A program made the position numbers and the translations under genes. A DNA stretch of 45,110 nt, taken from IMG/VR virus record IMGVR_UViG_3300035670_012729, positions 1-45,110 of that record; one strand, written 5' to 3'. This DNA is from a virus. How positions within the stretch are numbered: position 1 is the first letter of the stretch; every line of letters begins with the position of its first letter. This document shows, one piece after another, positions 3,067-45,110 of this stretch. Under the pieces are notes generated by a model. The model had not been told where the DNA came from and did no database searches. It saw only the letters and a program-made list of their open reading frames with translations.

Positions 3067-4773
3067 ATGGCCCAAGCATGGTCAATAATCCGTTGGGATT
3101 CAGAGATAAAAATTAGTGGTGGCACAATATCTTACCGTATATCTTCATCAAATATTGGTGCGCCATTAAAAAGGAACCTTTCCACATCTGGTCCATTTCA
3201 AGATGGAGAATTTTTTGTAGGTTTTCGTTATGACTCTCGGCTCATAACATTGGTATTTTTTGCTGATGCAGCGAGCCTGGCGCTGGCAGATGCCATGCGT
3301 GATGATATTTACGAATTGTGGCGTGGTATTGAGGGCCAGACGGTAACGCTCAAAGTCACGCGCGATGACGGTTCTGTGCGGCTGATTGATGGCGAGGTTG
3401 TCAATGTTGTGGATTTCCCAGATGCGGTCGGTGAGCGGTATGGTGCTTCGCAACGATTCGCTGTGCAACTGGAGTGCCACGATCCGTTCTGGCGTGGTCA
3501 GTCACTGGTGGTAAAAAACATCACTGTCAATGGCACCAGCACGCTGACATATGATGGGCAATATCCGACCGAACCTATCATCAATATTGTCGGGCCGATT
3601 GCAAATCCCGTGTTGACGCAGGTGGCCACTGGTAAAAAAATTGACTTCACCGGAACAACTATTGCCGCTGGAGACAATTACCAAATTGATACCAGATATG
3701 GTTATAAAACCGTGCTCGACGACACTTCAACTAATCGCATCGCCAACCTGACCAGTGACAGTGATTTGGCTGACTTTACGCATGAAACGTTTACCCCGAC
3801 ACTATCCCGACGCTGGTCGGCAGTGGCTGCGGCTGAGGCGAATACATGGCAATCGGTCGCATACGGCAATAGCGTCTGGGTGGCAGTAGCTAGTAGTGGC
3901 ACGAATCGTGTGATGCGCAGCACGGACGATGGTGCGACTTGGTCAGCGGTAGTGGCAGCTGAGGCGAATACCTGGAGGTCGGTTGCCTATGGCAATAGTG
4001 TTTGGGTGGCTGTATCCGGCAGCGGCACGAATCGTGTCATGCGTAGCACGAATGGTGGCGTGACATGGTCGGCTGTAGCAGCGGCTGAATCCAACGCATG
4101 GGAATCGGTCGCATACGGCAATAGTGTTTGGGTGGCAGTGGCCAGCACGGGCACGAATCGTGTCATGCGCAGCACGGACGATGGTGCGACATGGTCGGCG
4201 GTAGCGGCAGCCGCTGCAAATGAATGGGAATCGGTGGCGTATGGGAATGGCGTATGGGTGGCAGTAGCCACCACCGGCACGAACCGTGTCATGCGCAGCA
4301 CGGATGATGGTGCGACATGGTCGGCGGTAGCGGCAGCTGAAGCCAACGCATGGTACTCGGTCGCGTATGGCAACGATGTTTGGGTAGCAGTGGCATACAA
4401 TGGCACAAACCGGGTTATGCGCAGCACAAATGGTGGCTCGACCTGGACGGCTGTGGCAGCAGCTGATGCCAACGAATGGTATGCGGTTTCGTACGGCAAT
4501 GGAGTCTGGGTAGCTATAGCGGGGACTGGTACGAACCGCGTAATGCGCAGCGCGAATGGCGGCGTGACATGGTCGGCTGTGGCCGCAGCTGAGGCAAACA
4601 CGTGGTTGTCAGTCGCATACGGCAATAGTGTCTGGGTGGCGGTTGCACAGACTGGTACAAACCGGGCGATGCGCAGTACAGAGTTTGCTCAGCAATACAC
4701 GCTAACGGGTACGGGAACAACCGGTATTACAGCAGTTGAAATGAAATACAACGACATCTTCCTGGGGATATAA
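3067..4773 (+). CDS. Distal tail protein with inserted seven-blade propeller, copy 2
   Basis: A tandem paralogue of the gene at 1355, of almost equal length (568 residues), with the same order: Dit-like N-terminal half, seven 42-residue Trp-rich blades, and a short C-terminal segment ending FLGI. Conservation is uneven. The first 70 residues differ substantially between the copies, but 188 consecutive bases (3505-3692) are identical to 1793-1980. The blades here are more regular than in copy 1. Two Dit-type subunits could form a mixed hub or act as alternative receptor binders. It starts two bases after the upstream stop and lies in the same operon. Confidence 0.75.
   Translation: MAQAWSIIRWDSEIKISGGTISYRISSSNIGAPLKRNLSTSGPFQDGEFFVGFRYDSRLITLVFFADAASLALADAMRDDIYELWRGIEGQTVTLKVTRDDGSVRLIDGEVVNVVDFPDAVGERYGASQRFAVQLECHDPFWRGQSLVVKNITVNGTSTLTYDGQYPTEPIINIVGPIANPVLTQVATGKKIDFTGTTIAAGDNYQIDTRYGYKTVLDDTSTNRIANLTSDSDLADFTHETFTPTLSRRWSAVAAAEANTWQSVAYGNSVWVAVASSGTNRVMRSTDDGATWSAVVAAEANTWRSVAYGNSVWVAVSGSGTNRVMRSTNGGVTWSAVAAAESNAWESVAYGNSVWVAVASTGTNRVMRSTDDGATWSAVAAAAANEWESVAYGNGVWVAVATTGTNRVMRSTDDGATWSAVAAAEANAWYSVAYGNDVWVAVAYNGTNRVMRSTNGGSTWTAVAAADANEWYAVSYGNGVWVAIAGTGTNRVMRSANGGVTWSAVAAAEANTWLSVAYGNSVWVAVAQTGTNRAMRSTEFAQQYTLTGTGTTGITAVEMKYNDIFLGI
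3814..4683 (+). repeat. Seven 126-bp propeller-blade repeats, copy 2
   Basis: Seven in-frame units with Trp codons at a 126-bp period from 3814. Variation is concentrated at a few residues per blade: those just before the second Trp and those in the loop before T-N-R. The scaffold residues are almost fixed. Confidence 0.88.
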
Positions 4774-18429: not shown

Positions 18430-18760
18430 CAGCCACACCCGTATGCACCTCGGTATGCATACCGTATGCACACCAACAGTAGCTACCTGCCACCTGTATA
18501 CGCAAAACAGTAGATAGCCGGGGGCAAACTACAATGTATGCGCGGTATGTCGGTATGCAGTACTAACTTTTCGTATACACGCGTATATGAAAAAGTTACT
18601 GCTGCATACCGACATACGCTGCATACCGGCATACGCGCTCAGCCAGAATAGCATATGGCGTGTCGCTGTATACTGAATTCAGCATATGGTGTGCAGCAGC
18701 ATACTGTTTTGCGTATGCATACCGGCTGCATACCGGTGCAGCGCCACCCTGCATACGTAA
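18430..18760. repeat. GTATGC iteron and palindrome region, candidate replication origin
   Basis: About 330 bp without a gene, holding at least a dozen GTATGC/GCATAC hexamers plus GTATAC and CATATG variants in both orientations. The centre (about 18542-18620) is a long inverted repeat. One arm reads GTATGTCGGTATGCA, then AACTTTTC; the other reads GAAAAAGTT, then TGCATACCGACATAC, around a TATACACGCGTATA core. The same element recurs at 37212-37320. The position between the replication operon and the rightward early operon suits an origin. Confidence 0.6.
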
Positions 18761-18875: not shown

Positions 18876-19352
18876 ATGATGCGAATGGTCTACATTATTC
18901 GGCGGGAAGGCTCAGATGAATACAAAATCGGATACACTGCCAACAGTGACGTCAATGTCCGTTTGCAGGAGCTGCAGACAGGTAATGCTCGTCGCCTTAT
19001 TGTTGTAACAACCATTGAAGGAGGTACAGATGTAGAGACTGATTTTCATCGACGGTTTTGGCAATACAAAACCGATGGCGGCACAGAGTGGTTTGATATT
19101 CCAGAAAAAATAATTTCAAAGGAGATTCATGAGTATGCAAAAACAGAAGACGATTTCAGTTCGGTTGGAGGGGCTTCGCCCTTTGATGTTCGACAGGTAT
19201 GCTGGGGACAACAATACCCAGCTCCCAACAGCAGAGAAAATGTACCTGACTCCAGATATGGGGCTGGTAATTCCAGCCATCAATATCCTATCCTTACTGG
19301 CCGCAGAGAATACGAAATCAGTGTGCCGTCAGTTCTTCGGGAAGAACGGTAA
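18876..19352 (+). CDS. GIY-YIG family protein (T5orf172/MUG113 type)
   Basis: 158 residues. Residues 5-23 contain VYIIRREGSDEYKIGYTAN, the GIY-YIG-like opening. RLQELQTGN and ETDFHRRFWQYKTDGGTEWF (ending about residue 76) complete the small T5orf172/MUG113 domain found in many phages. The remaining ~75 residues have no recognisable pattern and overlap the next gene, in another frame, by 224 bp. The original stop may therefore have been lost by a frameshift or point change. It starts at one of three close ATGs (18876, 18879, 18885) with only a weak CAGG site. The likely role is nucleic-acid cleavage or binding. Confidence 0.65.
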   Translation: MMRMVYIIRREGSDEYKIGYTANSDVNVRLQELQTGNARRLIVVTTIEGGTDVETDFHRRFWQYKTDGGTEWFDIPEKIISKEIHEYAKTEDDFSSVGGASPFDVRQVCWGQQYPAPNSRENVPDSRYGAGNSSHQYPILTGRREYEISVPSVLREER

Positions 19353-19686
19353 AACCGTTGCTTTGGGTATCAGCAGTTATTCCACTATCAATGCTATCAA
19401 TATTCCTCTCTGTGATGACAACGGAAGAATTGTCTTCACCGGATGGAATGAGCAGCTCCATATTCACAAGGCAGTCGCTCGCGTGAAAAACGGCATTCCA
19501 AATCCCAAGGAGCGGCCAGTGTTGGAGCTGCCTTGGTCTCTGACGTTTGATGTCGGCTATGTGGAAAACAAATTTTGCACGATTGAGAATCTGCGTCAGG
19601 CGTTTGATATGGGAGGTACTCTGGGTTTGGGCACATTCCGGCCCATATTTGGCAGATATCAATTGTCTCAGTGGGATATTGCATAA
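19129..19686 (+). CDS. Unrecognised phage protein with Gly-rich C-terminal motif
   Basis: 185 residues from ATG 19129, with AAAGGAG five bases upstream. The N-terminus (VRLEGLRPLMFDRYAG) and the C-terminal motif GLGTFRPIFGRYQL resemble a phage protein family I recall only as hypothetical. The end recalls the Gly-rich loop of RAMP/Cas7-like folds, but that is speculative. The fold seems alpha/beta without membrane segments. The GGCNN arrays begin four bases after its stop codon. Confidence 0.65.
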   Translation: MSMQKQKTISVRLEGLRPLMFDRYAGDNNTQLPTAEKMYLTPDMGLVIPAINILSLLAAENTKSVCRQFFGKNGKTVALGISSYSTINAINIPLCDDNGRIVFTGWNEQLHIHKAVARVKNGIPNPKERPVLELPWSLTFDVGYVENKFCTIENLRQAFDMGGTLGLGTFRPIFGRYQLSQWDIA

Positions 19687-19689
19687 CAC

Positions 19690-19794
19690 GGCGCGGCCCG
19701 GCGCGGCCCGGCGCGGCTAGGCGTGGCAGGGCCTGGCGGGGCTCGGCAAGGCGTGGCGTGGCGTGGCAAGGCAAGGCAAGGCGTGGCGAGGGAA
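19690..19794 (+). repeat. GGCNN pentamer array 1 (20 units)
   Basis: Twenty consecutive pentamers GGCNN without a break, closed by GGGAA. The two variable bases differ from unit to unit (GC, CC, TA, GT, AG, CT, GG, TC, AA, GA). The five-base period is incompatible with a simple codon repeat. The plus strand is G-rich and could form two-layer G-quadruplexes or R-loops. Confidence 0.95.
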
Positions 19795-19850
19795 GTATTC
19801 GTGACATCGGCAAGCAGGGGCGTTCGAGCCGCCCCGTCACGATTGCCCAC
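19795..19850 (+). ncRNA. T-arm-like structured unit 1
   Basis: A 56-nt spacer between arrays 1 and 2. A 7-bp stem TCGTGAC/GTCACGA encloses an 11-nt single strand, then a 6-bp stem GGGGCG/CGCCCC with the loop TTCGAGC. The two stems abut on the 3' side as in a tRNA acceptor/T-arm stack. Confidence 0.55.
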
Positions 19851-19970
19851 GGCTAGGCCGGGCGAGGCTAGGCCCGGCAGGGCTGGGCGCGGCGGGGCGC
19901 GGCGAGGCACGGCTGGGCTCGGCGCGGCTCGGCTAGGCGTGGCATGGCAAGGCAAGGCGAGGCGAGGGAA
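19851..19970 (+). repeat. GGCNN pentamer array 2 (23 units)
   Basis: Twenty-three uninterrupted GGCNN pentamers closed by GGGAA at 19966-19970. It is the longest array. The last units, GGCAA GGCAA GGCGA GGCGA, echo the end of array 1, so array ends are more conserved than array bodies. Confidence 0.95.
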
Positions 19971-20025
19971 GTATTCGTGATATCGGCAGCAGGGGCGTTC
20001 GAGCCGCCCCGTCACGATTGCCCAC
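19971..20025 (+). ncRNA. T-arm-like structured unit 2
   Basis: A 55-nt unit that differs from unit 1 at two places: TCGTGAT instead of TCGTGAC, giving a T-G wobble with the 3' strand, and GGCAGC instead of GGCAAGC. The TTCGAGC loop and GGGGCG/CGCCCC stem are unchanged. Confidence 0.55.
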
Positions 20026-20125
20026 GGTGCGGCAGGGCTAGGCGCGGCAGGGCTAGGCTGGGCGAGGCAGGGCTAGGCGTGGCCTGGCGCGGCGCGGCAC
20101 GGCCTGGCAAGGCATGGCGAGGGAA
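20026..20125 (+). repeat. GGCNN pentamer array 3 (19 units)
   Basis: Nineteen pentamers closed by GGGAA at 20121-20125. The first unit is GGTGC, the only interior deviation from GGC seen in any array. Confidence 0.93.
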
Positions 20126-20181
20126 GTGTTCGTGACATCGGCAAGCAGGGGCGTTCGAGCCGTCCCATCACGATTGCCCAC
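20126..20181 (+). ncRNA. T-arm-like structured unit 3
   Basis: A 56-nt unit of the same type as unit 1 (GACATCGGCAAGC). The inner stem carries CGTCCC (a G-T wobble) and the outer stem has one C-A mismatch. Loop TTCGAGC is unchanged. Confidence 0.55.
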
Positions 20182-20276
20182 GGCGCGGCCGGGCTCGGCG
20201 GGGCGCGGCTAGGCGGGGCATGGCGGGGCATGGCGGGGCATGGCGCGGCCGGGCAAGGCAAGGCATGGCGAGGGAA
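20182..20276 (+). repeat. GGCNN pentamer array 4 (18 units)
   Basis: Eighteen GGCNN pentamers closed by GGGAA at 20272-20276. Three GGCGG-GGCAT pairs in a row show local dimer amplification. Confidence 0.94.
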
Positions 20277-20331
20277 GTATTCGTGATATCGGCAGCAGGG
20301 GCGTTCGAGCCGCCCCATCACGATTGCCCAG
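20277..20331 (+). ncRNA. T-arm-like structured unit 4
   Basis: A 55-nt unit of the unit 2 type. The outer stem is TCGTGAT/ATCACGA, a full T-A replacement of the C-G pair in unit 1, which is compensatory. Loop and inner stem are unchanged. Confidence 0.55.
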
Positions 20332-20381
20332 GGCTGGGCGCGGCGCGGCGTGGCTGGGCGCGGCGAGGCCAGGCCAGGGAA
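20332..20381 (+). repeat. GGCNN pentamer array 5 (9 units)
   Basis: Nine GGCNN pentamers closed by GGGAA at 20377-20381. No structured unit follows; instead a short leader with AGAAGGAGG leads into the first Trp-rich gene at 20409. Confidence 0.93.
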
Positions 20382-20408: not shown

Positions 20409-20756
20409 ATGACAGAACCTGACTGGAAGAAAGCGCCTTCGTGGGCACAGTGGTTTGCCATCGACGGCGCTGGCCGGGCTTGGTGGTATGAAATCGAGCC
20501 AACGCCGAAGTGGACTTCTTGGCGTGGGATGATATCTCACGCCGGCGAATATCTAGCCTCGGCAGCCAGAGTCCCTTCATGGGCACAATGGTTCGCTGTC
20601 GACGGCGACGGCGAAGGTTGGTGGTATGAAGTCGAGCCTACGTCGGTATGGGATTCCTCGCGTGGGATGGTATGTCGCGCTAGTGACACAACTGTCAACT
20701 GGAAAAAATCACTTCACCAGCGGCCGACAGAAGGAGAAGAACGTGACAGAGCCTGA
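20409..20756 (+). CDS. Trp-rich array protein 1 (two-domain fusion)
   Basis: 115 residues from ATG 20409, preceded by AGAAGGAGG. It contains two copies of the array domain (APSWAQWFAIDGAGRAWWYE near the start and VPSWAQWFAVDGDGEGWWYE in the middle), with DWxxSLxxRP-like NWKKSLHQRP at the end. It looks like two array genes fused by loss of the intervening stop and start. The function of the domain is unknown. It resembles small Trp-rich proteins common in phages and annotated as hypothetical. Its stop overlaps the start of the next gene by 14 bp. Confidence 0.75.
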   Translation: MTEPDWKKAPSWAQWFAIDGAGRAWWYEIEPTPKWTSWRGMISHAGEYLASAARVPSWAQWFAVDGDGEGWWYEVEPTSVWDSSRGMVCRASDTTVNWKKSLHQRPTEGEERDRA

Positions 20757-20970
20757 CTGGTCAATAGCCCCTTCGTGGGCGATGTGGTTTGCCATCAACG
20801 TCGACGGGCGAGCTTGGTGGTATGGAACAGAGCCGAAACTCAGCCAGTGGTTTGGCTGCTGGGTACCAAAACTCTGGGAAGAAAAATTTTCGTGCGAATA
20901 TGAATTTGTTGGACTACTCTATTGTGACGACTGGGAGCAGTCACTCAGGCAGCGGCCAACAGGAGAATAA
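20743..20970 (+). CDS. Trp-rich array protein 2
   Basis: 75 residues from GTG 20743, after GAAGGAG. Array pattern: EPDWSIAPSWAMWFAI, then DGRAWWY, then DDWEQSLRQRP. Over about 160 bp it is nearly identical to array protein 6 (21682), differing at only a few bases, which marks a recent block duplication. It is the only array member with a GTG start. Confidence 0.72.
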   Translation: MTEPDWSIAPSWAMWFAINVDGRAWWYGTEPKLSQWFGCWVPKLWEEKFSCEYEFVGLLYCDDWEQSLRQRPTGE

Positions 20971-21231
20971 ATGGAACCTGACTGGACGGAAGCCCCTTCG
21001 TGGGCGCAATGGCTTGCCGTCAACCGAAGCGGCTCGGCGTGGTGGTGGGATGCCAAGCCAGTGGCCAACCAAAAAACAGGCTGCTGGAGAATCACCGACG
21101 AGAATTACATGCGGTATCACGCCGGCAGATACCCCGCGGGCGATGACTGGCGGCGGGCTCTCAGGCAGCGGCCAGAGTTGGGCGCTGCGGAACAATTGTA
21201 TTTGTTTGCAGGAGTAACGCATGCAACCTGA
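20971..21231 (+). CDS. Trp-rich array protein 3
   Basis: 86 residues from ATG 20971, immediately after the previous stop, with AGGAG upstream. Array core EPDWTEAPSWAQWLAV and AWWWDAKP, ending DDWRRALRQRP. A 14-residue C-terminal tail (ELGAAEQLYLF and on) is unlike the other members and overlaps the next start by 11 bp. Confidence 0.72.
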   Translation: MEPDWTEAPSWAQWLAVNRSGSAWWWDAKPVANQKTGCWRITDENYMRYHAGRYPAGDDWRRALRQRPELGAAEQLYLFAGVTHAT

Positions 21232-21463
21232 CTGGACGACAGCGCCCTGGTGGGCGCGGTGGTTCACCGTCGACGATGACGGTGGAGGTTGGTGGTGGAA
21301 AACAAAACCGAAACCCAGAAAAAAAAGTGGCCGATGGCTCGGGCCAGATACCAGAGAATGGTATTACGCTCAGCCAGCCGGCGTCTACCCCGAATCTGCC
21401 ACCGACTGGCAGAACTCACTTTGTCAGCGTCCAACAGAAGGAGGAGAACATGACAGAACCTGA
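21221..21463 (+). CDS. Trp-rich array protein 4
   Basis: 80 residues from ATG 21221, with AGGAG upstream. Core QPDWTTAPWWARWFTVDDDGG, followed by a basic stretch KPKPRKKSGRW unusual for the otherwise acidic array, then TDWQNSLCQRP. The last codons lie over the ribosome site of the next gene. Confidence 0.72.
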   Translation: MQPDWTTAPWWARWFTVDDDGGGWWWKTKPKPRKKSGRWLGPDTREWYYAQPAGVYPESATDWQNSLCQRPTEGGEHDRT

Positions 21464-21695
21464 CTGGACGACAGCCCCTTCGTGGGCACAGTGGTTCACC
21501 ATCGACGACGACGGATACGGTTGCTGGTGGGACACCCAGCCAGTGGCCAACAAAATGATCGGTTGCTGGCAGGTGGACATGTCCAGCGACTGGTACGACA
21601 CGCAGCCAGCTGGCATATACCCTGACGCTGCAGACGACTGGGAGCACTCGCTCAGGCAGCGGCCAGTAGGAGGAGGAGAGCATGACAGAGCCTGA
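21450..21695 (+). CDS. Trp-rich array protein 5
   Basis: 81 residues from ATG 21450, after AGAAGGAGGAG. Core EPDWTTAPSWAQWFTIDDDG, a middle segment with MIGCWQVDMSSDWYD, and the end DDWEHSLRQRP. It shares PVANK-type wording with protein 3, suggesting exchange between members. Confidence 0.72.
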   Translation: MTEPDWTTAPSWAQWFTIDDDGYGCWWDTQPVANKMIGCWQVDMSSDWYDTQPAGIYPDAADDWEHSLRQRPVGGGEHDRA

Positions 21696-21927
21696 CTGGT
21701 CAACAGCCCCTTCGTGGGCGATGTGGTTTGCCATCAACGTCGACGGGCGAGCTTGGTGGTATGAAACAGAGCCGGAACTCAGCCAGTGGTTTGGCTGCTG
21801 GGTACCAAAATTCTGGGAAGAAAAATTTTCGTGCGAATACGAATTTGCTGGACTACGCTATTGTGACGACTGGGAGCACTCGCTCAGGCAGCGACCAACA
21901 GAAGGAGGAGAGCATGACAGAGCCTGA
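21682..21927 (+). CDS. Trp-rich array protein 6
   Basis: 81 residues from ATG 21682, with GGAGGAGAG upstream. It is the near-identical sister of protein 2 (APSWAMWFAINVDGRAWWYE, FGCWVPKFWEEKFSC). Here the GTG start is ATG and the C-terminus is longer (TEGGEHDRA). Confidence 0.72.
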   Translation: MTEPDWSTAPSWAMWFAINVDGRAWWYETEPELSQWFGCWVPKFWEEKFSCEYEFAGLRYCDDWEHSLRQRPTEGGEHDRA

Positions 21928-22168
21928 CTGGTTACTCGCCCCCAAATGGGCAGAGTGGTTCGCCGTCGATGATGACGGCGAAGCATGGTGGTATGAAACA
22001 AAGCCATATATTAAAACAAAATACGGTGTATGGCGACACGAGTTTCATCCAGAACCAAACATCTATTGGAGCTGTGAATATGCCGGTAATTACCCCGACG
22101 CTGTAGACGACTGGGAGCACTCGCTCAGGCAGCGGCCAGTAGGAGGAGAAGAGCATGACAGAGCCTGA
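21914..22168 (+). CDS. Trp-rich array protein 7
   Basis: 84 residues from ATG 21914, with GGAGGAGAG upstream. Core EPDWLLAPKWAEWFAVDDDG and AWWYETKPY, then an aromatic middle (NIYWSCEYAGNYP), then DDWEHSLRQRP. Strongly acidic. Confidence 0.72.
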   Translation: MTEPDWLLAPKWAEWFAVDDDGEAWWYETKPYIKTKYGVWRHEFHPEPNIYWSCEYAGNYPDAVDDWEHSLRQRPVGGEEHDRA

Positions 22169-22376
22169 CTGGAATCAATCCCCTTCGTGGGCAGAGTGGT
22201 TCGCCATTGATGACGACGGCGAAGCATGGTGGTACGAGACAAAGCCCCACGCCAAAACGAACGATGGTATGTGGCGGCAAGAATTTCCCGGGAACATTTA
22301 TCGGAGTTCCGAGCATGCCGGTGTTTACCCCGAAGCCGCCGCCGACTGGCAGGACTCGCTCAGGCAGCGCCCATGA
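22155..22376 (+). CDS. Trp-rich array protein 8 (last)
   Basis: 73 residues from ATG 22155, after GGAGGAGAAGAG. Core EPDWNQSPSWAEWFAIDDDG, then AWWYETKP, ending exactly at ADWQDSLRQRP. It lacks the GGEHDRA tail because no array gene follows. Its stop overlaps the next, unrelated gene by ATGA. Confidence 0.72.
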   Translation: MTEPDWNQSPSWAEWFAIDDDGEAWWYETKPHAKTNDGMWRQEFPGNIYRSSEHAGVYPEAAADWQDSLRQRP

Positions 22377-41992: not shown

Positions 41993-44900
41993 ATGTCCAC
42001 AGTAGAAATACTCATCAATGCGCAGGACAATGCATCGTCCAAACTGGATAATGTGGGCAACTCGCTCGAGCGTCTGGGCTCCAAAACTGGCGGCATAGAA
42101 TCGTCGTTTGCCAATCTGCAAAAAACCATCTCGGTAGGTGTGGTCGGTGCTGTTGCTGCGCTGGGCGCATCGCTGGCCGGCCTGACAGCTGTCGTCACCG
42201 ATGGCGTCGGCAAGGCGGCCGATCTAGAACAGGGCGTCGCCGACATCGCTGCGGTCATGGGCGTCGCATCCGACGAGGTCGCTCCTCTCAAAAAACTCAT
42301 CGGCGACCTGGGCATGGATCCGACGCTGAAGGTCAACTCGACCGAAGCCGCCGATGCCATCATGCAACTGGCACAATCCGGTATCAGCATGTCGGAAATC
42401 ATGGATGGCGCTGCCAAAAATGTGGTGCTGCTCAGCAATGCGACTGGCGGTGACATGGCGCTCAGCGCTGCCATTGCATCGGATGCGATGGCGTTGTTTG
42501 GCATCTCGGCTCAGGACATGGCCGTAGCCGTCAATCAAATTACCGGCGTGACAGTAGCCAGCAAATTTGGCATCGAGGATTATCAGTACGCGTTGGCCGC
42601 CGTGGGTGGAGTTGCCTCGACGTTAGGTGTTTCATTTACCGACCTCAACACTACCATCGCGGCAATTTCCCCTTCGTTTGCGAGCGGTTCGGATGCTGGT
42701 ACGTCGCTAAAAACAATGTTGTCGAGAATGATTCCTGCGTCGGAAGATGCAGCTGAGGCCATGCGGCAAATCGGCTTGTTTTCTGGCATGACATCTGGTG
42801 AGATGGAAAGTGCCCAGAAACAAGCCAAAAAACTTCAGGATAAAATCGCTGCGTTAGATCCTACATCGGCAGAGTACACTGAAAAATCTGCATTGCTCAA
42901 TCAACAATTGCAAAATGTCAATGCGTCAATGGTTTCCGGACAGAATGCATTTTTCAATACTGATGGTTCAATGAAGAGCATGGCGGAAATTTCAGGGATT
43001 CTACAAAATGCATTGTCAGGATTGTCAGACGAACAAAAAGCTGCCACACTAAACACCATTTTCGGATCTGATGCTATTCGAGCAGCGTCGGCATTAGCCG
43101 GCTTAGGTTCTGCAGAATTTGACAAATTAGCTGCCAGCATCGGTCAGGTGGATGCTGGCCAGTCTGCAGCCACACGCATGGATACATTTGGCGGCACGAT
43201 GGAGGTTCTGGCGGGCATCGTTGACAGCCTGTCGATACAAATCGGCGATGCGTTTCTGCCAGTGCTGCGCAATCTGGCGCAATGGGCCATAAACTTCACG
43301 ACCCAAAATGGCCAGGCGCTTATCGGACTATTCCAACAACTGGCTGGTGTGCTGGATTTTGTCTTGGGATACTTCACAGCGACCATCGAGCGCGGCACGC
43401 TCATGAATGAGCAGTTCGAAAAATTGCCTAGAGCCATCCAGCCGATTGTGGAATTTGTGTCGTCACTCGCTACGGCGGTGAGTAGGCTACTGATTCAGCA
43501 AGAATACTGGAAAGATCTTCTCATCGCAGTAGGTATCGTACTGACAACCATATTAGCTCCGGCTATCGCTGGTTTCCTGGCAGCGTTTGCACCTGTCGCC
43601 GCTCTGCTGGGCGGAATAATTGTAGTCGTGCGCAAACTGCGGAAGACATTTGCAGTTCAGTTCGGTGCCATTTTTGACAATTTATCCCATATGATTCAGC
43701 TCGTACTTGCATGGACATCCGGTATGCTCACCGGTTGGGTGTCTGTCGAAAAAGGACTGAAAAATGTGGGCGATGCATTCAAAATCCACTTGGGCCGAGC
43801 GTATGATCAATTCCTAATCATATTCAACGCGATACTGGTGTGGGTGGTCAACAGTTTACCTCTCTGGATTAGCAATCTGCAATCGTGGGCCGCCGCATCC
43901 TGGCAATGGCTGGTCGATGTGGTACCTGTTGTGCTGGAAAAAATAGGCGCATGGGGTGCAGCGCTCATCGGCTGGGTAATCGAAAATTTGCCAGCGTGGG
44001 TGGCAACATTCCAAGATTGGGCTGCCGCAATATGGCAATGGCTGGTCGATGTGGTACCTATTGTGCTGGAAAAAATAGGTGCATGGGGTGCAGCGCTCAT
44101 CGGCTGGGTAATCGAAAATTTGCCAGCGTGGGTGGCAACATTCCAAGATTGGGCAGTGGCAATATGGCAATGGCTCGTCGATGTGGTACCTGTTGTGCTG
44201 GAAAAAATAGGCGCATGGGGTGCAGCGCTCATCGGCTGGGTGACCGAAAATTTGCCAGCGTGGGTGGCAACATTCCAAGATTGGGCAGTGGCAATATGGC
44301 AATGGCTCGTCGATGTAACACCAATAGCTGTCGAAAAAATAGGCGCATGGGGTGCAGCACTCATTGGTTGGGTGACTGAGAATCATCCTGCCTGGGCCGC
44401 ATCATTCAGCGACTGGTCTGCTGCTACATGGCAATGGATTGTCGATGCGACTCCCACCGGCACAGAAAAATTGGTTGAATGGGCCGAGACATACTACACG
44501 TGGCTGGGCGAAAATTTGCCTGACTGGATCGAGGCATTCCTCGACTGGTCACTGGCTATGGTCGAATGGATAGGCGAAGCTCTTCCAGAGGCGATCCGGG
44601 CAATCGGTAATTTTGTGCAGGGTATATCGGATACCGGCGATGAAGAAGGAAAGTCTCAGTTTCCAGGACTGGTTTCTGGCTGGGCAGGCGCGCTAATCAA
44701 CTGGATCACAAATGATTTGATTCCGCAGGTCGGCCCAAAATTTTTACTACTCATGCAGAAATATGCCCAAGCCATGTTGAATATAGCTGTTGAACTGGGA
44801 AAATTAGCGATTATTTTAGCGGTGAAATTGTGGGAATGGATTGTTGAAGTTACCCCGATTGCGGTTGAAAAGTTGAAGGAATGGGGCGGCGCATTGCGTG

Positions 44901-45110
44901 ACTGGATAACCGAAAATCTTCCAGCTTGGATTGAAAAACTCCGAGAATGGGGTGCAGCTATTTGGGAATGGCTCGTTGAAGTCACCCCGATTGCGGTTGA
45001 AAAGTTGAAGGAATGGGGCGGCGCATTGCGTGACTGGATAACCGAAAATCTTCCAGCTTGGATTGAAAAACTCCGAGAATGGGGTGCAGCTATTTGGGAA
45101 TGGCTCGTTG
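41993..45110 (+). CDS. Tail tape measure protein, N-terminal part (runs off window)
   Basis: ATG 41993 with AGGAG seven bases upstream; the frame stays open to the window edge (more than 1030 codons). Residues about 70-270 match the TP901 tape measure core (GVADIAAVMGVASDEVAPLKKLI, then AADAIMQLAQSGISMSEIM and GSDAGTSLKTMLSRM). A Gln/Lys coiled region and a long hydrophobic stretch (GIVLTTILAPAIAGFLAAFAPVAALLGGIIVVV, about residues 513-546) follow. From about 43859 come Trp-rich 44-residue repeats. The product sets tail length and may aid DNA passage. The gene continues, probably into base 1 of this window. Confidence 0.9.
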   Translation, partial: MSTVEILINAQDNASSKLDNVGNSLERLGSKTGGIESSFANLQKTISVGVVGAVAALGASLAGLTAVVTDGVGKAADLEQGVADIAAVMGVASDEVAPLKKLIGDLGMDPTLKVNSTEAADAIMQLAQSGISMSEIMDGAAKNVVLLSNATGGDMALSAAIASDAMALFGISAQDMAVAVNQITGVTVASKFGIEDYQYALAAVGGVASTLGVSFTDLNTTIAAISPSFASGSDAGTSLKTMLSRMIPASEDAAEAMRQIGLFSGMTSGEMESAQKQAKKLQDKIAALDPTSAEYTEKSALLNQQLQNVNASMVSGQNAFFNTDGSMKSMAEISGILQNALSGLSDEQKAATLNTIFGSDAIRAASALAGLGSAEFDKLAASIGQVDAGQSAATRMDTFGGTMEVLAGIVDSLSIQIGDAFLPVLRNLAQWAINFTTQNGQALIGLFQQLAGVLDFVLGYFTATIERGTLMNEQFEKLPRAIQPIVEFVSSLATAVSRLLIQQEYWKDLLIAVGIVLTTILAPAIAGFLAAFAPVAALLGGIIVVVRKLRKTFAVQFGAIFDNLSHMIQLVLAWTSGMLTGWVSVEKGLKNVGDAFKIHLGRAYDQFLIIFNAILVWVVNSLPLWISNLQSWAAASWQWLVDVVPVVLEKIGAWGAALIGWVIENLPAWVATFQDWAAAIWQWLVDVVPIVLEKIGAWGAALIGWVIENLPAWVATFQDWAVAIWQWLVDVVPVVLEKIGAWGAALIGWVTENLPAWVATFQDWAVAIWQWLVDVTPIAVEKIGAWGAALIGWVTENHPAWAASFSDWSAATWQWIVDATPTGTEKLVEWAETYYTWLGENLPDWIEAFLDWSLAMVEWIGEALPEAIRAIGNFVQGISDTGDEEGKSQFPGLVSGWAGALINWITNDLIPQVGPKFLLLMQKYAQAMLNIAVELGKLAIILAVKLWEWIVEVTPIAVEKLKEWGGALRDWITENLPAWIEKLREWGAAIWEWLVEVTPIAVEKLKEWGGALRDWITENLPAWIEKLREWGAAIWEWLV
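43859..44500 (+). repeat. 132-bp tandem repeats in tape measure gene, group 1
   Basis: About five in-frame units of 132 bp (44 codons) with the pattern W-Q-W-L-V-D-V-V-P, E-K-I-G-A-W-G-A-A-L-I-G-W-V, ENLPAWVATF. Three consecutive units keep exactly 132-bp spacing (43981, 44113, 44245); later units diverge. Regularly spaced Trp and Phe are known in tape measure repeats. Confidence 0.92.
44843..45110 (+). repeat. 132-bp tandem repeats, group 2, cut by window edge
   Basis: Two units of 132 bp (44843-44974 and 44975-45106) that differ at one base, and the window ends as a third begins. Near-identity makes assembly collapse likely. Confidence 0.93.

What the first reader, a model, noticed from the sequence alone, without database searches (positions are those of the whole stretch)
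19690..20381. Five arrays of the pentamer GGCNN with almost unconstrained NN
89 pentamers in five arrays (20, 23, 19, 18 and 9 units) keep GGC at a strict five-base period, apart from one GGTGC. The other two positions use 15 of the 16 possible dinucleotides (only TT is missing). Ordinary slippage gives identical repeats; here spacing and GGC are kept while the other two bases are free. That implies selection for a physical property or a templated process. Possible roles: two-layer G-quadruplex or R-loop DNA, phased protein binding at half a helical turn, or a barcode-like diversifying tract. Every array ends with GGGAA.
Basis: seen in the sequence. Interest (0 to 1): 0.92.

Follow-up and report, generated by a model that had tools for sequence, protein, structure and literature searches.

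The report
VIPR guide-RNA arrays in a phage
The odd five-letter repeats are the guide-RNA genes of a recently described phage system (VIPR) that stores a DNA address two letters per repeat; here each full array ends in a small transfer-RNA-like fold that the published main text does not mention.

Summary
There are 89 pentamers in five arrays (20, 23, 19, 18, 9), 88 GGC and one GGT, with 15 of 16 NN pairs used. They are VIPR guide-RNA (vrRNA) genes. The gene ending 3 nt before the first array (19129-19686) encodes Vipr, a Cas7-like RAMP protein. Its family profile hits the solved SUSP1 Vipr (PDB 36pp, E=8e-52), and its AlphaFold model (pLDDT 95) matches Csm3. VIPR was reported in a 2026 preprint (PMC13142463): GGY holds the protein, and the NN pairs read DNA with one base skipped between pairs. 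So the kind is known. Two features may be new. (1) Each of the four complete arrays is followed by a tRNA-like fold: a 7-bp stem, a GG-containing linker and a T-arm with a TTCRANY loop. It covaries strongly across relatives. A covariance model finds it in VIPR loci including LittleE and Trine, and never in 819 kb of other phage DNA. (2) A GIY-YIG nuclease-like gene sits directly upstream of vipr in 35 loci and overlaps it out of frame in 21 of 21 distinct sequences. I found no target for this phage's guides. NN composition in 202 VIPR loci resembles codon positions 1+2, as the published code predicts.

The parts
18876..19352 (+). GIY-YIG (MUG113/T5orf172) nuclease-like ORF, 158 aa; candidate accessory (vap) gene; its 3' part overlaps vipr out of frame
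   Evidence: Pfam PF13455 E=4e-12, PF10544 E=1e-7; directly upstream of vipr in 35 loci; same +1 overlap in 21/21 distinct sequences
19129..19686 (+). vipr gene, 185 aa (start possibly 19135), Cas7/RAMP-like protein; stop codon 3 nt before array 1
   Evidence: phrog_4652 E=1.7e-11; family profile hits PDB 36pp 'SUSP1 Vipr protein' E=7.9e-52; AlphaFold pLDDT 95.1, Foldseek to Csm3/Cas7 E about 6e-7, prob 1.00
19690..19789 (+). vrRNA 1 repeat tract, 20 GGC-NN units
19790..19850 (+). vrRNA 1 constant tail; tRNA-like fold at 19799-19842
   Evidence: covariance model R1 52.8 bits; folds as MFE; covariation
19851..19965 (+). vrRNA 2 repeat tract, 23 units
19966..20025 (+). vrRNA 2 constant tail; tRNA-like fold at 19975-20017
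   Evidence: R1 49.8 bits
20026..20120 (+). vrRNA 3 repeat tract, 19 units (first is GGTGC)
20121..20181 (+). vrRNA 3 constant tail; tRNA-like fold at 20130-20173 (one mismatch in the outer stem; its lone-sequence MFE is a different fold)
   Evidence: R1 50.3 bits
20182..20271 (+). vrRNA 4 repeat tract, 18 units
20272..20331 (+). vrRNA 4 constant tail; tRNA-like fold at 20281-20323 (compensatory U-A pair next to the T-arm)
   Evidence: R1 51.3 bits
20332..20376 (+). array 5, 9 units without a tail; probably a truncated vrRNA
   Evidence: GGGAAG is followed by the leader of the next ORF, no tail; no R1 hit

Best explanation
This is a phage VIPR (Viral Interference Programmable Repeat) locus. 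The Vipr protein (19129-19686), a small Cas7-like RAMP, assembles along vrRNAs transcribed from the arrays, presumably one GGY-NN pentamer per protein contact. GGY anchors the RNA, while the NN pairs jointly base-pair with double-stranded DNA under a one-base-skip rule and so direct the complex to other phages or mobile elements. In this lineage each complete vrRNA ends in a tRNA-like 3' handle (7-bp stem + GG linker + T-arm). A GIY-YIG nuclease-like protein encoded in an overlapping upstream frame is the likely accessory factor, and might cut the target rather than only silence it. Shown here: the arrays, the Vipr family and fold, the phage-wide linkage, co-orientation with genes, NN variability, covariation of the tail, and GIY-YIG linkage. 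Taken from the preprint: guide function, the one-base skip, repression. Inferred: this locus is active, its targets, the GIY-YIG role, and how the array is processed.
For: Protein: profile of 54 family members hits PDB 36pp SUSP1 Vipr, E=7.9e-52; 53/54 members match phrog_4652; AlphaFold model matches Csm3/Cas7. Linkage: Vipr is the immediate neighbour of 180 of 308 array clusters, and 202 of 264 loci carry Vipr although most are fragments. Of 21 loci fetched by protein alone, 18 have runs of 7 or more GGY-NN units, at most 3 on the opposite strand. Position: 307 of 322 clusters intergenic, genes on both sides co-oriented 221 times against 9 reversed. Code: NN composition fits codon positions 1+2 better than 2+3 or 3+1 in 300/300 bootstraps and in 118 of 168 loci. 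Tail: covariation score 0.954 against 0.216 in shuffles, 12 of 13 pairs changed on both sides; R1 gives 34 hits in VIPR loci and none in 819 kb of control phage DNA.
Against: No target found: seeds of 7-8 NN from arrays 1-3 under the one-base-skip rule gave only chance-level matches in IMG/VR. Whole-guide scans of fetched loci showed no excess for skip 1, and two guides of another VIPR locus found nothing in 116 genomes of its family. Tracts here are longer (18-23 units) than the 9-16 published for two clades. No expression data. The published function rests on one preprint, and its type definitions are in supplements I could not open, so the type is not assigned.
Confidence: 0.95

Rival explanations
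1. The arrays are DNA or RNA structural elements (two-layer G-quadruplex or R-loop formers, or phased protein sites at half a helical turn), not guides.
For: GG at a strict 5-nt period with 3-nt loops fits a two-layer quadruplex; arrays lie on the coding strand.
Against: A quadruplex needs neither the invariant C/T after GG nor a Cas7-like RNA-binding protein next door. NN composition mirrors codon positions 1+2. The tail is a covarying RNA fold. Relatives are experimentally shown guides (PMC13142463).
Confidence: 0.02
2. The arrays are multivalent RNA binding sites for autoregulation or mRNA handling: Vipr binds GGYNN repeats in its own operon transcript, in the way TRAP binds NAGNN repeats, and NN is merely neutral.
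For: Arrays often directly follow vipr stop codons on the same strand; pentamer spacing resembles TRAP sites (from memory).
Against: NN is not neutral: TA is depleted (0.62 of expectation) and codon-like composition is seen; arrays are split into units each with its own structured tail; relatives target DNA (PMC13142463).
Confidence: 0.02
3. It is a VIPR locus, but a decayed or inactive one in this phage.
For: Array 5 has no tail; the outer stem of tail 3 has a mismatch; no target found.
Against: Vipr ORF intact with the family's invariant residues and a confident fold; four arrays with conserved tails; one tail varies by a compensatory pair.
Confidence: 0.12

Closest known systems
VIPR systems (Vipr + vrRNA), Escherichia phage SUSP1 and the Pseudomonas fulva prophage, PMC13142463 / PDB 36pp
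   Same: Vipr RAMP protein, alternating GGY/NN repeat tracts with free NN, structured 3' tail, phage-encoded, small locus
   Different: GGC almost throughout; 18-23 units instead of 9-16; tail is a tRNA-like T-arm fold rather than the SUSP1 pseudoknot; the upstream neighbour is a GIY-YIG domain overlapping vipr
Class 1 CRISPR Cas7/Csm3 (type III-A Csm complexes)
   Same: RAMP fold with a C-terminal glycine-rich motif; AlphaFold model matches Csm3 at TM about 0.5-0.66
   Different: No CRISPR array and no other cas genes seen next to it; 5-nt unit with 2 guide letters instead of 6-nt segments of a contiguous guide
tRNA T-arm/D-loop elbow (tmRNA tRNA-like domain, polycistronic tRNA-guide arrays)
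   Same: 7-bp acceptor-like stem next to a 5-7-bp T-arm with TTCRANY loop closed by G-C; GG in the linker as in D-loops
   Different: No anticodon or D stem, no CCA; not found by ARAGORN or Rfam

Membership tests
VIPR | Vipr-family RAMP protein encoded at the locus | tested here: met
   Profile that includes the window protein hits 36pp E=7.9e-52; fold match to Csm3
VIPR | Adjacent noncoding RNA with alternating GGY and hypervariable NN | tested here: met
   89 units, 15 of 16 NN; NN differ between arrays and from relatives L286/L287
VIPR | Structured constant 3' tail | tested here: met
   ~60-nt tail repeated four times; covariation 0.954 vs 0.216; fold differs from the SUSP1 pseudoknot
VIPR | One accessory (vap) gene acting on DNA | tested here: inconclusive
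   GIY-YIG gene upstream in 35 loci; whether it is one of vap1-6 cannot be read from the main text
VIPR | One-base-skip recognition of dsDNA | tested here: inconclusive
   No targets found; NN composition fits codon positions 1+2
VIPR | vrRNAs expressed and bound by Vipr | not testable with these tools
   Needs sRNA-seq and pull-down
CRISPR-Cas class 1 | Direct repeats with unique contiguous spacers and multiple cas genes | tested here: not met
   No CRISPR-like tandem structure around the locus; the neighbours scanned are not cas genes
tRNA / tmRNA | Full cloverleaf or tmRNA detected | tested here: not met
   ARAGORN and Rfam negative for the window

The most novel reading that the evidence does not exclude
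In several phage lineages the vrRNA tail is a tRNA elbow mimic that the host tRNA-maturation enzymes (RNase P and/or RNase Z) use to cut a multi-guide precursor into single vrRNAs, a natural tRNA-punctuated guide array; and the overlapping GIY-YIG protein turns this phage-borne VIPR into a target-cutting weapon.
Probability: 0.25. Interest if true: 0.8.

Novelty: new variant of a known kind. Interest (0 to 1): 0.62.

Why it matters
VIPR is a newly described RNA-guided system with a gapped code and is proposed as an ancestor of CRISPR. This window adds a deep Vipr branch. A tRNA-like tail recurs in separate Vipr lineages, including cultured Mycobacterium and Gordonia phages, so guide processing can be tested in laboratory strains. 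The conserved overlapping GIY-YIG gene suggests a phage-carried version that cuts DNA, whereas the preprint links nuclease-bearing types to host defence islands. The codon-position signal in NN supports the published code in a data set far wider than the two clades studied.

Tried and rejected
Exact match to the spacer start in IMG/VR: none. BLAST of the arrays: only Mycobacterium phages, of which the one examined (Mattes) proved to carry Vipr; no plasmids. Microsatellite slippage: rejected, only 4 of ~120 viral hits are pure repeats. Coding repeats: rejected by gene calls. Rfam and ARAGORN: no known RNA in the window, and no hammerhead in 14 related loci. Single-sequence fold energies of the tails are not clearly below shuffles (z -1.2 to +0.6), so the structure claim rests on covariation. 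Family-wide search for related loci failed for lack of conserved blocks. Target searches were negative. L153 and L154, genome hits of the GGC pattern, are plain minisatellites without Vipr. In the tree the row L166 used guessed coordinates and should be ignored.

Full report
What is in the sequence. The five arrays are exactly as described: 20, 23, 19, 18 and 9 pentamers, 88 GGC and one GGT, with 15 of the 16 dinucleotides in the free positions. The period-5 GGC pattern never occurs on the other strand or in 100 shuffles. Each array is followed by GGGAAG. After arrays 1-4 that is the start of a constant ~60-nt tail; array 5 has no tail. The last three or four units of arrays 1-4 are nearly constant, so the variable part is about 14-19 units.

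How common it is. The window is a 45,110-bp IMG/VR virus record; terminase, portal, major head and tail genes confirm a tailed phage. A stricter pattern that excludes microsatellites again reached 120 in IMG/VR but gave only 15 in all GTDB genome contigs, some of which are plain minisatellites. With a home-made phased gene caller, 307 of 322 array clusters are intergenic. They start a median 19 nt after a stop codon, and genes on both sides run with the GGC strand 221 times against 9 reversed. The element is therefore most likely read as RNA.

The partner protein. One family is the immediate neighbour of 180 of 308 clusters. In the window it is the 185-aa ORF 19129-19686, ending 3 nt before array 1. 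It is PHROG 4652, 'unknown function', and has no Pfam family. A profile of 54 members matches one PDB chain, 36pp_D 'SUSP1 Vipr protein', at E=7.9e-52. An AlphaFold model of the window protein (pLDDT 95.1) matches Csm3 and other Cas7-like RAMPs. Loci fetched by protein alone also carry arrays: 18 of 21 have runs of at least 7 GGY-NN units on the gene strand.

What it is. The preprint PMC13142463 (bioRxiv 2026.04.26.720920) describes VIPR: a Vipr RAMP and vrRNAs of 9-16 YNNGG repeats with a structured 3' tail. The NN pairs recognise dsDNA with one skipped base between pairs, usually at the codon wobble position, while GGY does not pair with the target; the complex silences competing phages. The window locus meets every feature that sequence can settle. 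The finding is therefore a VIPR locus, a kind first reported in April 2026.

Independent support for the code. If guides copy coding targets with the skip at the wobble base, NN should look like codon positions 1+2. Over 202 loci the NN frequencies fit a sense/antisense mixture of positions 1+2 (KL 0.039) better than 2+3 (0.085) or 3+1 (0.195), in all 300 bootstraps and in 118 of 168 loci taken singly. TA is depleted to 0.62 of expectation. This is indirect: biased third positions could make 1+2 the best fit for other reasons, although 1+2 also beats overall gene composition (KL 0.089). Direct target searches for the window guides failed. The best case, array 1 against L350, matched 26 of 34 letters, no better than the best permuted controls.

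A tRNA-like tail. The tail of arrays 1-4 forms a 7-bp stem, a linker containing GG, and a 6-bp hairpin whose loop UUCGAGC, closed by G-C, fits the tRNA T-loop consensus; the hairpin abuts the 3' strand of the stem as a T-arm abuts the acceptor. T-loop hairpins occur in 21 of 536 distinct post-array stretches against 0.76 expected. Swapping 3' strands between tails lowers acceptor pairing from 6.1 to 4.8 of 7. On 15 sequences the structure pairs in 93% of cells, with a change on both sides in 12 of 13 pairs and a covariation score of 0.954 against 0.216 in shuffles. The sequences were chosen for having a T-loop hairpin, so the acceptor stem is the more independent part. A covariance model gives 34 hits in VIPR loci, including ones not used to build it (L104, the Mycobacterium abscessus prophage prophiBWHA-1, more tails in MakoManhole, three in Trine), and none in 819 kb of other phage contigs. 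On the Vipr tree the tail marks one well-supported clade that holds the Mycobacterium and Gordonia phages and, separately, the window with L286; starred branches force at least three changes. The SUSP1-like phage wV8 has a different tail. The preprint's main text has no 'tRNA' or 'T-loop'; its supplements could not be read.

A nuclease-like neighbour in an overlapping frame. A GIY-YIG domain gene lies directly before vipr in 35 loci of the window's clade. In all 21 distinct sequences its frame runs 51-86 codons into vipr, always at offset +1. Synonymous shuffling of vipr keeps that frame open with probability 0.001-0.16 each, product 10^-26.7; the sequences are related, so the product overstates the case, but the conservation is clear. 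The preprint ties nuclease-bearing VIPR types to host defence islands; here such loci sit on viral contigs.

Mechanism, step by step. Shown here: arrays, protein family and fold, linkage, strand, variability, tail covariation, GIY-YIG linkage. From the preprint for relatives: vrRNA-Vipr complexes, one-base skip, repression. Inferred: the window locus works the same way; the tRNA-like tail is the 3' handle (most likely) or a processing signal for RNase P/Z (about one in four); the GIY-YIG protein helps or cuts at the target.

Noticed in passing
18876-19352 against 19129-19686: GIY-YIG ORF overlaps vipr out of frame by about 220 nt; the same arrangement in all 21 distinct relatives, which is unusual for a phage gene pair. 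PADLOC gives a weak hit to candidate PDC-S57 (E=1.3e-5).
   Followed up: partly
18430-18760: Clustered GCATACCGG-type repeats and palindromes just upstream of the VIPR operon, where gene direction changes; could be a replication or control region.
   Followed up: no
20410-22170: Tandem run of small paralogous ORFs with EPDW..APSWA.WFAVD..G..WWYE..P-like sequence (one matches phrog_1972, unknown function) directly after the arrays.
   Followed up: no
1-879, 2150-2714, 3814-4676, 43901-45110: Long tandem repeats of 126-138 bp (multiples of 3) in ORFs at both ends of the window, near tail genes.
   Followed up: no
L151 (Mycobacterium phage Mattes) 2959-3187 and gp52: gp52, annotated hypothetical, is a Vipr, with tail-less runs joined as GGCAGGCGC just upstream, which looks like the 'staggered' vrRNA arrays of the preprint; such phages are an easy laboratory system.
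   Followed up: partly
L276 (prophiBWHA-1) 2874-2917 and gp43: A Mycobacterium abscessus prophage carries Vipr plus a tRNA-like tail although its GGY-NN runs are short and imperfect (longest 4 units).
   Followed up: partly
L042, L231, L241 tails: Another tail class: GCAAAC/GTTTGC changes to GCTAAC/GTTAGC between relatives, pairing the last GGCNN unit with the tail end.
   Followed up: partly
L033 8568-9059 and L242 13035-13520: Two further families without a significant Pfam hit mostly follow vipr directly (44 and 37 members); likely accessory proteins of other VIPR types.
   Followed up: no
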